DNA of 64,000 bases from Aquicella lusitana (GTDB lineage Bacteria; Pseudomonadota; Gammaproteobacteria; DSM-16500), in the NCBI RefSeq assembly GCF_902459475.1, contig NZ_LR699115.1, positions 62,001 through 126,000 on the forward strand, in the 5' to 3' direction. Below the pieces are notes generated by a model. It did not search any database and was not told the origin of the DNA. It saw nothing but the letters and a program-made list of their open reading frames with translations. Made by a program: the position numbers and the translations under genes. Positions 8,428 to 59,661 of this stretch are shown piece after piece. The first letter of the stretch is position 1. The number at the start of each line of letters is the position of its first letter.

Positions 8428-9107
8428 CCAATTTAATTGCTTACTTACCCGATTTATTAAGCGGCTTGTCCGTTACCCTCACGCTAATGCTGGCGTCGGT
8501 GGCAGCAGGTTTAGTGCTAGCTGTTTTAATGACGCTCTGTAGTATTTCTGAAAATATATTTCTGCAAAAGCCAGTCAACCTATTTATTTTCTTTATTCGT
8601 GGCACACCTCTACTCGTGCAGCTTTTTCTAGTTTATTACGGGCTTGGTCAGTTTGAATGGATAAGGCATTCATTTCTCTGGATCGCCCTCCGTGAGCCGA
8701 CGGTATGTGCGATCATCGCGCTTTCTGTAAATACGGCTTGTTATACGTCTATTCTGCTAAAAGGCGCGATTCACTCTGTTCCTAAAAGTGAAATCGCTGC
8801 TTGCGAAGCGCTTGGCATGTCAAAATGGCTGGCGTTGCGCCGCATTATTCTGCCCCGCGCTTTTCGTATTGCTTTACCTGCGTACTCTAATGAAGTAATT
8901 ATTGTATTAAAGTGTACATCGCTTGCCAGCACGATTACCCTGCTTGATCTGATGGGCGTAACGCAACAGTTAATCGCACAAACTTATGACACGATTACTT
9001 TGTATTTACTAGCCGGGACCCTATACTTGTCACTGAATGCTGTCATTATCAGTGTATTCAAAATAGTGGAAAGAGGGTGCAGGATTCCTACCCAACACGC
9101 GCGATAG
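8424..9107 (+). CDS. artM: Amino-acid ABC permease subunit (ArtM type)
   Basis: 227 residues, the second permease half. The EAA loop reads SEIAACEALGMSKWLALRRIILPRA, and FFIRGTPLLVQLFLVYYGL is the characteristic RGTPLLVQ helix of this family. The start overlaps the preceding subunit by four bases. It ends the operon; a large inverted repeat follows from 9117. Confidence 0.88.
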   Translation: MTNLIAYLPDLLSGLSVTLTLMLASVAAGLVLAVLMTLCSISENIFLQKPVNLFIFFIRGTPLLVQLFLVYYGLGQFEWIRHSFLWIALREPTVCAIIALSVNTACYTSILLKGAIHSVPKSEIAACEALGMSKWLALRRIILPRAFRIALPAYSNEVIIVLKCTSLASTITLLDLMGVTQQLIAQTYDTITLYLLAGTLYLSLNAVIISVFKIVERGCRIPTQHAR

Positions 9108-9116
9108 ATTGCGATG

Positions 9117-9275
9117 GGAGCATGACCCGTTTTTAGCAGCAAGAGTAACCATTCTCTGCTGCTCCTTTTGCAAAGAAACGACTTGGTTTTTGTCGCAGAA
9201 CAAGCCGGTGAAAGAGCGGGTTCCCCTTGTTCTGGAAAAAAAGTTACTCTAGCTGCTAAAAGCGGGTAGTGCTCC
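9117..9275. repeat. Structured dispersed repeat, complete copy
   Basis: About 159 bp with long imperfect terminal inverted repeats: GGAGCAtgACCCGtTTTTAG (from 9117) pairs with the complement of the segment ending in CGGGTagTGCTCC (9275), and the pairing extends through AGCAGC.AGAGTAAC (to 9150, and from 9243). The interior holds a perfect 9-bp stem, CAGAACAAG (9196-9204) with CTTGTTCTG (9226-9234). The right two-thirds recur near 46793-46912. It lies between artM and the thiamine operon. No coding potential and no evident target duplication were seen. Confidence 0.75.
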
Positions 9276-9282
9276 AATTGGA

Positions 9283-9311
9283 TTAACTGGATTCTAAAAA
9301 AAAATTATGTT
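9283..9311 (+). promoter_or_regulatory. Possible promoter of the thiamine operon
   Basis: TTAACT (9283-9288), a 17-base spacer rich in A, and TATGTT (9306-9311) form a moderate sigma-70-type promoter placed about 15 bases before the riboswitch. Confidence 0.4.
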
Positions 9312-9326
9312 TAAATGTGTGCGCTT

Positions 9327-9413
9327 GTTCACTAGGGGTGCTTCAGGTTTTCCTGAAGCTGAGAGAGTCCCTTTGAACCTGATCGGGCTAGGGCCTGCGT
9401 AGGGAATGTGACT
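9327..9413 (+). promoter_or_regulatory. TPP riboswitch (THI element)
   Basis: The conserved core is plain: GGGGTGC, then a stem CTTCAGG/CCTGAAG, the invariant CTGAGA (9359-9364), CCCTTTGAACCTGATC, and GCGTAGGGAA. A short closing helix TCAC/GTGA joins 9329-9332 with 9408-9411. The element binds thiamine pyrophosphate and lowers expression of the downstream genes. It precedes thiC by about 80 bases. Confidence 0.95.
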
Positions 9414-9453
9414 AGACATGCAAAAACTTTCGGTTTTGTGACTATTCTTGCGT

Positions 9454-12232
<2,779 letters not shown>

Positions 12233-34880: not shown

Positions 34881-34954
34881 TTTATGAATGCATGCCACAA
34901 CATACCGGCAGTTGTGACCTATTTAGGGCAACAACAGAAGGATATGTTTACTGG

Positions 34955-35136
34955 CTTATCTTCTTTCATCCGGACTTTAACCGTCGGCTCTGGATTTGCA
35001 CCAAATCTGCTGACCAGCTCTCATGGGGCAAAATGGCCTCATGAAAGTGCGCTCGCGGGCTTTTTGCTACCGATTAATTATCAATAAGTTAGCAAATTAC
35101 CGCCGGTAGGGAATTACACCCTGCCCCGAAGATAAG
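34955..35136 (-). promoter_or_regulatory. FMN riboswitch (RFN element)
   Basis: On the minus strand the element begins CTTATCTTC and ends GAAGATAAG, a perfect nine-base closing helix. Between them are the conserved GGGGCAGGGTG.AATTCCC, TACCGGCGGT, and at the 3' end GATTTGGTG.AAATCCAGAGCC, GACGGTTAAAGTCCGGATG. The element binds FMN and lowers expression of ribD-ribE-ribBA-ribH. Confidence 0.96.
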
Positions 35137-35142
35137 GCATGA

Positions 35143-46485: not shown

Positions 46486-46792
46486 GCTTTTATTCCTCGG
46501 CCTGTTTTGCTTTGCCCAAACATGGACAAATTTTGAGATTTAGATCGTTGTGCATTGTTTAAAATAAATCCCGTCGATAGCTGAACCGCATTTAGTTTCG
46601 TGAGATAAGCTTTTCATATGCTAGCAGAAAAAGGATATAGCCACTAATTCCGATAGCGCGATGTATGCAAGGCAGCGAGTATAAAGTAAATTTTTATAGA
46701 CTCAACTAAACATCACTAGAGGTGTTCAATATATAGACAACAATACTCGGACCGTATTCTCCCAACAGATTGCGCTAGTGTGCTATCCCTGT

Positions 46793-46912
46793 CGTTCCTT
46801 TCGCAAAGAAACGGCTGGTTTTTGTCACGGTGCAACCCGGTGGAGAATGGTTGCACCGCCTGTTTCTGGAGAAAAAATGGTTACCTTCGCTGCTAAAAAC
46901 GAGTAATGCTCG
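46793..46912. repeat. Structured dispersed repeat, truncated copy
   Basis: About 120 bp that match the right two-thirds of the element at 9117-9275, e.g. GCAAAGAAACG.CTGGTTTTTGTC, CCGGTG, TGTT.CTGGA and GCTGCTAAAA.CG.GTAATGCTC. It has its own perfect 9-bp stem, GGTGCAACC (46829-46837) with GGTTGCACC (46849-46857). The left terminal arm is missing. The rest of the intergenic stretch from 46486 shows no gene. Confidence 0.7.
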
Positions 46913-46986
46913 CTTAACTTACCAACATTTTGATAATAATGTATTATACTGAAATCGAACAGACGAATATTTTTAAGGATGAAAAT

Positions 46987-58414: not shown

Positions 58415-59661
58415 CACTACTGTCCGGTGAACCAGATTAAAAATTGATCGTCCTTGGTAAAGCGCTATGATAGCGCGCTAAACACCACATTTAGCACCAA
58501 GGACGAACTGATGAAAGATACCGTTTTTCAACGATTATTAAAACCCGTTACAAAAAAATTAATGAAGGAATGTATAGAACGCTTTCGATCTGATCATCGT
58601 TATGAATCATTTAATACATTTGAACATTTAAAAACGATGATTTATGCACATATTAATGAAATTAAAAGCTTACGCACGTTAGAGGTTGCGATAAACAGTC
58701 AAAAAATTGGTATAAAAACGCAAGTAAAACGCTCGACCTTAAGTGATGCCAATCGAAAACGACCAGCCGAAAGTTTCTTTTGGATATTAGAACAGCTTAT
58801 GTCTTTGTTACCCAGGAAAAAACATAAAGAAATAAAAAAAGTAATCAGGATATTAGATAGTAGCCCGATACAGCTAAGAGGCCAAGGGTACGATGAGTGG
58901 TCAAAGCAATATGCGACTCGGCATATACAAGGATTAAAACTACATGTTGAATATGATTTAGGATTAGATTTGCCCTTAAGGATGAAGTTGAGTCATCCAA
59001 ATTGTAATGATGCGACGATGGGACAAAAATGGCCAATCCTTAAAAACACCCTTTATGTGTTTGATAAAGGTTACTACGATTACAATTGGTGGTGGAGCAT
59101 CAACAAAAGGCAGGCTTATTTTGTGACTCGATTAAAGAAGAATGCGGCCATTGTTATAGAAAGCCGGCAAAAAAATACTCGCGAACCCATCTTACAAGAT
59201 TGTCTTTTTAGAATTTCAAATAAAGTTCCACGTGGTGGAAAACGCATGGAATATAGCGAGACGCTGAGATATATAAGTGTAAAAAGGGAAGGAAAAACTC
59301 CTCTTATTTTGGTAACTAACTTGAAAGATTTACCAGCAGAAAATATTGCTAAGCTTTATAAAGCCCGATGGGAAATAGAGCTATTTTTTAAATGGATCAA
59401 GCAAAATCTTCGACTTAAAAAATTTCTGGGCCGATCTTCTAATGCGGTTAAAATTCAAATAGCAACAGCCTTGATTGCTTTTATATTGATACAGATATTT
59501 AAAAATGTTTCAAATGAGAAACGTTCATTACATCTCGTTTTAGTCTGGATCAGACATAATTTGCATGTTGCAGAATATCGCAATAGACAATACAAGCCTC
59601 CTATTTATTTAATTTCAAGGAGGCCTGTTTATTTATGATACAGGTTCACCGGACAGTAGTG
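58415..59661 (+). mobile_element. IS4-family insertion sequence, complete
   Basis: 1247 bp with perfect 19-bp terminal inverted repeats (CACTACTGTCCGGTGAACC at 58415-58433 and its complement at 59643-59661). The flanks carry a ten-base direct repeat CGCTGCGCTC (58405-58414 and 59662-59671), the target-site duplication. One transposase gene lies inside. Ends, duplication and gene are all intact, so recent insertion is likely. Confidence 0.92.
58511..59638 (+). CDS. IS4-family DDE transposase
   Basis: 375 residues from the ATG at 58511 (AAGGA upstream; an in-frame ATG at 58454 is possible). An N-terminal DUF4372-like part (TVFQRLLKPVTKKLMKECI, FEHLKTMIYAHI) is followed by the catalytic domain: first Asp in RILDSSPI, second in VFDKGYYDY, and the complete Y(2)R(3)E(6)K signature in YKARWEIELFFKWIK. 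It cuts and joins the ends of its element. No damage is seen. Confidence 0.93.
   Translation: MKDTVFQRLLKPVTKKLMKECIERFRSDHRYESFNTFEHLKTMIYAHINEIKSLRTLEVAINSQKIGIKTQVKRSTLSDANRKRPAESFFWILEQLMSLLPRKKHKEIKKVIRILDSSPIQLRGQGYDEWSKQYATRHIQGLKLHVEYDLGLDLPLRMKLSHPNCNDATMGQKWPILKNTLYVFDKGYYDYNWWWSINKRQAYFVTRLKKNAAIVIESRQKNTREPILQDCLFRISNKVPRGGKRMEYSETLRYISVKREGKTPLILVTNLKDLPAENIAKLYKARWEIELFFKWIKQNLRLKKFLGRSSNAVKIQIATALIAFILIQIFKNVSNEKRSLHLVLVWIRHNLHVAEYRNRQYKPPIYLISRRPVYL

What the first reader, a model, noticed from the sequence alone, without database searches (positions are those of the whole stretch)
9117..9275. Previously unlabelled structured repeat family, complete copy
A 159-bp element has 34-base terminal inverted repeats and an interior stem. 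A second copy 37 kb away (46793-46912) shares the right part but its interior stem is made of different bases, each pairing perfectly in its own copy. That points to a selected structure rather than chance, e.g. a MITE-like element or a structured RNA. I know no name for it.
Basis: partly seen in the sequence, partly recalled or inferred. Interest (0 to 1): 0.65.

Follow-up and report, generated by a model that had tools for sequence, protein, structure and literature searches.

The report
Unnamed mobile DNA palindrome family
The repeat is a small mobile DNA palindrome too short to move by itself; a close relative carries dozens of copies whose two halves differ from copy to copy yet match each other, which looks more like one half being copied from the other than like natural selection for an RNA shape.

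Summary
The element at 9116-9276 is real: its 34-nt arms match at 29 of 34 positions, fold z -7.6. Copy 2 is a true relative that lost its left arm. Both interior stems exist, but their right halves are not at equivalent positions, and stems that long occur in 49 and 13 of 1000 shuffles.
A congeneric genome (G001) settles the class: 91 matching ends; 41 two-ended copies of 158-180 bp were examined, and 24 carry an 8-9 bp direct repeat at 74% identity or more (cross-pair chance 1.3%). This is a MITE, a non-autonomous transposon. No transposase was found.
Arm covariation is very strong (36 of 72 pairs change on both sides; 0 of 500 shuffles reach it), but G.U (55) is no commoner than A.C (64) in the outer stem, against selection on an RNA. 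Three further palindrome families have near-constant cores with copy-specific, matched arms (in G015 core divergence 1%, arms 18%, within-copy mismatch 3/338). I infer template switching between arms. The window copy shares family A's end (25/30) but not detectably its core.

The parts
9116..9276 (+). Complete copy 1 of the palindromic MITE
9117..9150 (+). Left arm (terminal inverted repeat) of copy 1; the first 30 nt from 9116 match the G001 family-A end consensus at 25 of 30
9242..9275 (-). Right arm of copy 1, 29 of 34 identical to the left arm when reverse-complemented
9108..9115 (+). ATTGCGAT, possible left half of a degenerate target duplication, directly after the stop codon of the upstream permease gene
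   Evidence: read by eye; one indel against the right half, weak on its own
9277..9283 (+). ATTGGAT, possible right half of the degenerate target duplication
   Evidence: read by eye; weak on its own
9196..9204 (+). Interior stem of copy 1, left half CAGAACAAG
   Evidence: 49 of 1000 shuffles have a stem as long
9226..9234 (+). Interior stem of copy 1, right half CTTGTTCTG
46768..46913 (+). Copy 2, interior and right arm; left arm lost
46879..46912 (-). Right arm of copy 2 (28 of 34 identical to copy 1's left arm)
46828..46837 (+). Interior stem of copy 2, left half CGGTGCAACC
46849..46858 (+). Interior stem of copy 2, right half GGTTGCACCG
   Evidence: 13 of 1000 shuffles have a stem as long

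Best explanation
A MITE, a non-autonomous DNA transposon of about 160-173 bp, which is almost a perfect palindrome round a short core. Shown: the family in congener G001 has sharp ends, a preferred length of 173 bp, an 8-9 bp target duplication and many dispersed copies; the window copy carries a homologous end. Inferred: it moved by a DDE-type transposase acting in trans (not found; lost, unsampled or in a family not searched); copies lie between genes, often just after stop codons, where they are tolerated. Inferred: the two arms are kept alike by DNA template switching, one arm serving as template for the other during replication, known in general as quasipalindrome correction. This turns single mutations into matched double changes, lets arms evolve faster than the core while staying paired, and in a few copies may have carried the palindrome beyond the element into the flank. 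Arms then decay mostly by transitions. No function for the host is claimed.
For: End pattern with up to 3 mismatches: G001 91 ends (50 +, 41 -), G000 1, G016 1, none in the other 33 of 36 genomes; reversed-pattern control 0 in all 36. Before any length filter 12 of 21 automatically paired ends were exactly 173 bp apart. In 33 two-ended copies (filtered to 155-176 nt) flanking 8-mers are 0.511 identical against 0.288 for cross-pairs, 0 of 10,000 permutations. In 41 copies, 24 of 35 with plain flanks have the duplication, 0 of 6 with inverted flanks. Within-copy arm identity 0.862 against 0.752 between copies over 30 nt, 0 of 10,000. Double-sided changes at 36 of 72 pairs, 138 cells against 42.5 +- 5.4, 0 of 500; slid partners at most 27 cells. 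G.U 55 against A.C 64 in the outer stem, p 0.46. Within-copy arm mismatch / between-copy arm divergence / core divergence: 0.9/18.2/1.0% (B in G015, 7 copies), 1.4/23.5/7.1% (B in G001, 8), 1.2/23.5/8.4% (C, 4), 3.6/26.9/2.4% (D, 3). Copy 1's left end against the G001 end: 25 of 30, 0 of 5000 shuffles. Stops facing the element lie 0-90 nt away on 25 of 66 sides, median 9; copy 1's arm starts 9 nt after a stop.
Against: No transposase with these ends: of 8 ORFs scanned round three groups of ends, 7 have other functions and 1 has no clear family, and the 8 PF01609 places of G001 show no such end within the fetched 2.6-3.7 kb; other transposase families were not searched. The window core has no detectable similarity to the family A or B cores (best 73 of 400 shuffles). 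R3's hit on copy 1 (40.6 bits) is not independent proof: R3 also hits long hairpins of little sequence resemblance, clearly G009 and perhaps G002. Duplication decay and arm decay do not correlate across copies (rho -0.10, p 0.66, n 21). Four of the six copies with inverted flanks share a flank motif and may be a longer subfamily or nested palindromes. The absence of a direct repeat in those six follows largely from the inverted flank itself. Families B-D were found by a scan that requires matched arms, so their within-copy mismatch is biased low; D rests on 3 copies and C on 4. Recognisable duplications at the edge are seen in 4 of 8 B copies in G001 but at most 2 of 7 in G015. Copy 1's own duplication has an indel.
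Confidence: 0.72

Rival explanations
1. Structured RNA (for example a small RNA or an untranslated-region element) whose stems are kept by selection; double changes are ordinary compensatory mutations.
For: Very strong covariation; core hairpins shared between families A and B (0 of 400 shuffles); a QMITE2 copy of Coxiella gives rise to an sRNA, CbsR16.
Against: No excess of G.U over A.C (outer stem 55 against 64, inner helices 23 against 40). Core nearly identical while arms differ by 18% yet pair. Target duplications. In 8900-9520 no terminator-like site and no + strand promoter-like site; three on the - strand against 0.8 expected, none inside the element. No Rfam match.
Confidence: 0.1
2. 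MITE in which matched arms are kept by selection for mobility: only copies with complementary arms can be cut or paired by the transposase, for instance through a hairpin or cruciform.
For: Arm mismatch (105/905, 11.6%) is of the order of the duplication mismatch (27/176, 15.3%) in the same 21 copies, as if arms were matched at insertion and decayed later.
Against: Does not by itself explain core divergence of 1% beside arm divergence of 18%, nor inverted flanks beyond the ends. Arms matched for 40-60 nt are deeper than an ordinary transposase site (recalled).
Confidence: 0.2
3. A member of the Coxiella QMITE2 family, or REP sequences moved by RAYT tyrosine transposases.
For: QMITE2: size 150-190 bp, terminal inverted repeats, 7-11 nt direct repeats, 3' UTR preference, small truncated versions.
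Against: QMITE2 letters could not be compared here. REPs leave no target duplication (recalled), and this family has one.
Confidence: 0.06
4. Two unrelated hairpins or decayed insertion-sequence ends; resemblance is chance.
For: Only one complete copy in the own genome.
Against: Interior alignment score 88 against at most 26 in shuffles; exact 21-nt ends in three other genomes with zero controls; 91 ends in G001.
Confidence: 0.02

Closest known systems
QMITE2 of Coxiella burnetii (PMC5896051; abstract, sections 6, 8, 9, 10 and part 1 of section 14 read)
   Same: MITE of 150-190 bp with terminal inverted repeats and copy-specific direct repeats of 7-11 nt, mainly in 3' UTRs and intergenic regions; small truncated versions; very stable fold.
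   Different: Sequence identity untested; IS1111 insertion and a GTAG REP were not looked for here; copy-specific matched arms are not mentioned in the parts read.
Template switching between inverted-repeat arms, quasipalindrome correction (PMC8604942: abstract and found passages; PMC8794818: abstract and opening of the introduction)
   Same: One arm is copied onto the other, giving arm homogenisation and multi-base compensatory changes.
   Different: Described there for yeast coding genes and for RNA genes; here it would act on whole families of dispersed mobile palindromes.
Rickettsia palindromic elements (passages in PMC10969869)
   Same: About 150-bp palindromic repeats in several families within one lineage.
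   Different: RPEs often sit in frame inside coding genes; these lie mostly between genes.
REP sequences and REPINs with RAYT (recalled)
   Same: Short extragenic palindromes, often in inverted pairs, spread in trans.
   Different: Here long terminal inverted repeats and an 8-9 bp target duplication.

Membership tests
MITE (non-autonomous transposon) | Short element with terminal inverted repeats and constant ends | tested here: met
   41 two-ended G001 copies of 158-180 nt; 12 of 21 automatic pairs exactly 173; window copy 161 nt with 34-nt arms
MITE (non-autonomous transposon) | Target site duplication of fixed length | tested here: met
   8-9 bp in 24 of 41 G001 copies, permutation 0 of 10,000; for window copy 1 only a degenerate one read by eye
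MITE (non-autonomous transposon) | Dispersed multiple copies in one genome | tested here: met
   G001 91 ends; own genome one complete copy, one truncated copy and three solitary ends at E below 2e-7
MITE (non-autonomous transposon) | Autonomous partner with the same ends | tested here: inconclusive
   Not found among the places looked at; elements of about 173 bp are too short for a transposase gene
QMITE2 | Sequence similarity to CbsR16 / QMITE2 | not testable with these tools
   Letters not in the text read; no named Coxiella chromosome was used
QMITE2 | 7-11 nt direct repeats, 150-190 bp, near gene 3' ends | tested here: met
   (shared by many MITEs, so not sufficient)
QMITE2 | GTAG REP that is a target of IS1111 | not tested
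   no search for IS1111 was made
REP/REPIN moved by RAYT | Spread without target duplication (recalled) | tested here: not met
   Target duplication present
Any Rfam 15 RNA family | Score above the gathering threshold | tested here: not met
   Only TPP and FMN riboswitches in the window
Selected structured RNA | Covarying stems with G.U wobbles tolerated better than A.C | tested here: not met
   Covariation met but G.U 55 against A.C 64, inner helices 23 against 40

The most novel reading that the evidence does not exclude
A set of mobile palindromes built as a constant hairpin core plus arms that are rewritten copy by copy: the two arms are repeatedly made from each other by template switching, at or after each move, so that arms diversify many times faster than the core yet hardly ever stop matching, and the palindrome can grow by mirroring its flank. 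A and B share the core with unlike arms, while the window element and A share the ends with unlike cores, so core and arms behave as exchangeable modules.
Probability: 0.35. Interest if true: 0.8.

Novelty: new variant of a known kind. Interest (0 to 1): 0.6.

Why it matters
Compensatory base changes are the standard proof of a functional RNA helix. Here is a natural set of dozens of loci with strong compensatory change and no sign that an RNA is being selected, so it warns against reading covariation in palindromic mobile elements as RNA function, and it gives many replicate loci, many with a target duplication as a rough clock, on which arm copying by template switching could be measured. 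It also adds an apparently unnamed MITE group to an order held here as 36 genomes.

Tried and rejected
Alysiella crassa pattern hit: no such arms, and it lies in what looks like a coding region by reading; taken as chance. Solitary ends in G012, G016 and G025 as parts of a larger transposon: their contigs were fetched whole and a scan showed no second end beyond two weak matches of 15 of 22. IS with a PF01609 transposase near the C2:19353 end: by reading it sits in a neighbouring repeat and its own ends are unlike. Candidate autonomous elements spanning two ends in C4, C47 and C9 of G001: the eight ORFs scanned are a transporter, a hydrolase, an aminotransferase, a cyclase, three type II secretion proteins and one without a clear family. 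PF01609 places of G001: best matches to the family A end 17-18 of 31, much the same as round unrelated IS copies of G000. Class-wide search of 369 genomes, only three of them from the family: besides G000 one hit with 2 mismatches, while the reversed control gave 2, so no evidence outside. Other R3 hits: G009's hairpin has no clear end similarity; G002's is marginal (17-20 of 2000 shuffles against the family A end); G004's may be a further relative (0-2 of 2000), which I had first taken for unrelated; G020 was read and left as weak; G007 and G027 were not followed. Literature: end letters, MITE and Coxiella, Aquicella, a guess at the lineage that was never tested, template switching, palindromic elements; listings only, apart from the papers named.

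Full report
OBSERVATION. The palindrome is present as described. Arms 9117-9150 and 9242-9275 agree at 29 of 34 positions; the fold has z -7.57; a seeded scan (10-base seeds, spacing up to 330 nt) finds it as the only palindrome with arms of 20 nt or more in the window. Copy 2 is homologous over the interior and right arm (score 88, 200 single-base shuffles at most 26) but has no left arm, and its fold is no better than shuffled sequence. The interior stems are perfect in each copy, but only their left halves occupy equivalent positions, and stems of that length arise in 49 and 13 of 1000 shuffles.

OWN GENOME. The window is C2:62001-126000 of a 2.62-Mb unnamed assembly. A sequence-only model of nine ends (R1) finds, with E below 2e-7, the two arms of copy 1, the right arm of copy 2 and solitary ends at C1:1640633, C1:1861352 and C2:19353 (all of these were in the model), and weaker ones at C1:1348654 and C1:162400 (at most 150 candidates per genome were scored). 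The nine aligned ends have no invariant column before their common start. In 36 genomes of the order an exact 21-nt match occurs once each in G012, G016 and G025, with no match to the reversed control. In 369 genomes of the class, three of them from the family, nothing convincing was found outside it.

A HIGH-COPY RELATIVE. R1 gave 16 weak hits (best E 0.0185) in congener G001, including two inverted pairs about 173 bp apart. A pattern written from those ends finds 91 ends in G001 and none with the reversed control. Automatic pairing gave 21 pairs, 12 of them exactly 173 bp long. I fetched 70 places; 33 had both ends, a length of 155-176 nt and a minimum end score; the other 37 (solitary ends, short versions, or no clear second end) were left out. 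Of the 33, 19 are exactly 173 nt. With copies found by model R3 in longer stretches the set grew to 41, 158-180 nt.

IT TRANSPOSES. Flanking 8-mers are identical at 0.511 of positions against 0.288 for left and right flanks of different copies; 9-mers 0.444 against 0.289; no excess at 4-7 or 10-12. Twenty-one of 33 have a repeat of at least 74% identity at 8 or 9 bp, chance 1.3%. Of 41 copies, 24 of the 35 with plain flanks have it and 0 of 6 with inverted flanks; the second figure follows largely from the inverted flank itself. By a simple open-frame test, 26 of 66 sides face a gene end and 26 a gene start, 14 neither; stops lie 0-90 nt away on 25 sides, median 9. Copy 1's arm starts 9 nt after the stop of a permease gene and lies before a TPP riboswitch and thiC. 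Its own flanks, ATTGCGAT and ATTGGAT, are a plausible but degenerate duplication.

ARMS COVARY, BUT NOT LIKE AN RNA. On the alignment of the 33 copies, 91.4% of cells pair, 36 of 72 pairs change on both sides, and 138 cells do so against 42.5 +- 5.4 in shuffles (0 of 500); slid structures reach 27 at most. The structure came from one member, L187, which favours it on cells paired. In the outer stem the non-Watson-Crick cells are 55 G.U, 64 A.C and 24 others; in the inner helices 23, 40 and 72. Wobble pairs are not preferred, so the departures look like strand-symmetric transitions, not like selection on a transcript. In the 21 copies with a recognised duplication, arm mismatch is 105/905 (11.6%) and duplication mismatch 27/176 (15.3%); across copies they do not correlate (rho -0.10, p 0.66). 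Between the 33 copies the arm differs by 22.3% and the core by 15.1%.

MORE FAMILIES, ONE RULE. A palindrome scan of 235 kb of G001 (stretches chosen round family A, so density is biased) and 103 kb of G015 (contigs chosen for R3 hits) gave 36 and 9 palindromes with arms of 24 nt or more, 26 of the 36 with at most one mismatch; one shuffle of the G001 stretches in two-base units gave none. Clustering gives A (20), B (15: 8 in G001, 7 in G015), C (4), D (3) and three single ones. In B, C and D the core differs by 1-8% between copies, arms by 18-27% with matched insertions and deletions besides, yet arms match within a copy at 96-99%. The within-copy values are biased low by the scan; the between-copy values are not. 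Direct repeats of 7/8 or 8/9 at the element edge are seen in 4 of 8 B copies in G001 and perfect 8-bp ones in 2 of 4 C copies; G015 (at most 2 of 7) and D (1 of 3 beyond doubt) are weaker. Cores of A and B are homologous (0 of 400 shuffles) although their arms are unlike. The window element and A share ends (copy 1 left arm 25 of 30, 0 of 5000 shuffles; copy 1 right arm 21 of 5000; copy 2 right arm 0 of 5000) but not detectably cores.

MECHANISM. Shown: transposition of the family, and matched, copy-specific arms. Inferred: arm copying by template switching, described for inverted repeats in general (PMC8604942, abstract and found passages; PMC8794818, abstract and opening of the introduction). 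Supporting detail: six of 41 family A copies have inverted flanks of 21-32 nt and no duplication. In two (C23:176115, C8:9363) the inverted flank looks copy-specific; the other four share a motif and may be a longer subfamily or nested palindromes. Selection for matched arms in mobility is the main rival and could act as well.

WHAT FAILED. No transposase with these ends was found in the places looked at; one family, PF01609, was searched in G001. Model R3 scores copy 1 at 40.6 bits and R2 scores G001 copies, but R3 also scores other long hairpins, clearly so in G009, so these scores support shape more than kinship; kinship rests on the end sequence. On rechecking, the G004 hairpin does resemble the family A end (0-2 of 2000 shuffles) and may belong. 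G001 and G015 are draft assemblies of about 50 and 120 contigs; artefacts at a few palindromes cannot be excluded, though duplications and differing arms at dozens of loci argue against artefact as the cause.

PLACE AMONG KNOWN THINGS. By anatomy it is a MITE. QMITE2 of Coxiella (PMC5896051) is the nearest published analogue I met in size, direct repeats and location; identity was not testable. The element itself is a new member of a known kind; the constant-core, copy-specific-arm behaviour of the group is what I call a new variant. That it is not in print rests only on the searches in one open-access library. The organism was not identified.

Noticed in passing
window 9324-9423 (+) and 34954-35137 (-): TPP riboswitch downstream of copy 1 and upstream of thiC; FMN riboswitch further on.
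   Followed up: no
window 9106-9113 and about 46766-46774: Both copies have AGATTGCG on the left, just before copy 1's arm and at the start of the truncated left side of copy 2; unexplained, and the solitary ends lack it.
   Followed up: no
window about 58454-59638, and G000 C2:19616-20266: An insertion sequence with a PF01609 transposase in 11 places of equal score; at C2 its ends read cactactgtccggtgaacc and it sits in a repeat like TCATCCTGAGCGTAGCGAAGGATCT with a 10-bp direct repeat gagcgtagcg.
   Followed up: partly
L043 11305-11676 (G000 C1 about 1866304-1866675): A 372-bp stretch of the own chromosome bounded by perfect 62-nt inverted repeats.
   Followed up: no
G001 L253-L264 and G015 L245-L252: Families B, C and D of long palindromes beside family A; one C copy (L261 839-1137) has in its arms a piece that reads like a family A end.
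   Followed up: partly
L181, L187, L203, L257 flanks; also L165, L186, L200, L150: A shared flank motif like GCGTTTCACTTAGGTATTCTAT next to several family A copies, perhaps another palindromic repeat or a longer subfamily.
   Followed up: partly
L241, L242, L243: Long near-perfect hairpins in G004 (end resembles family A), G002 (GTGTCATCCTGAG...CTCAGGATGACAC) and G009.
   Followed up: partly
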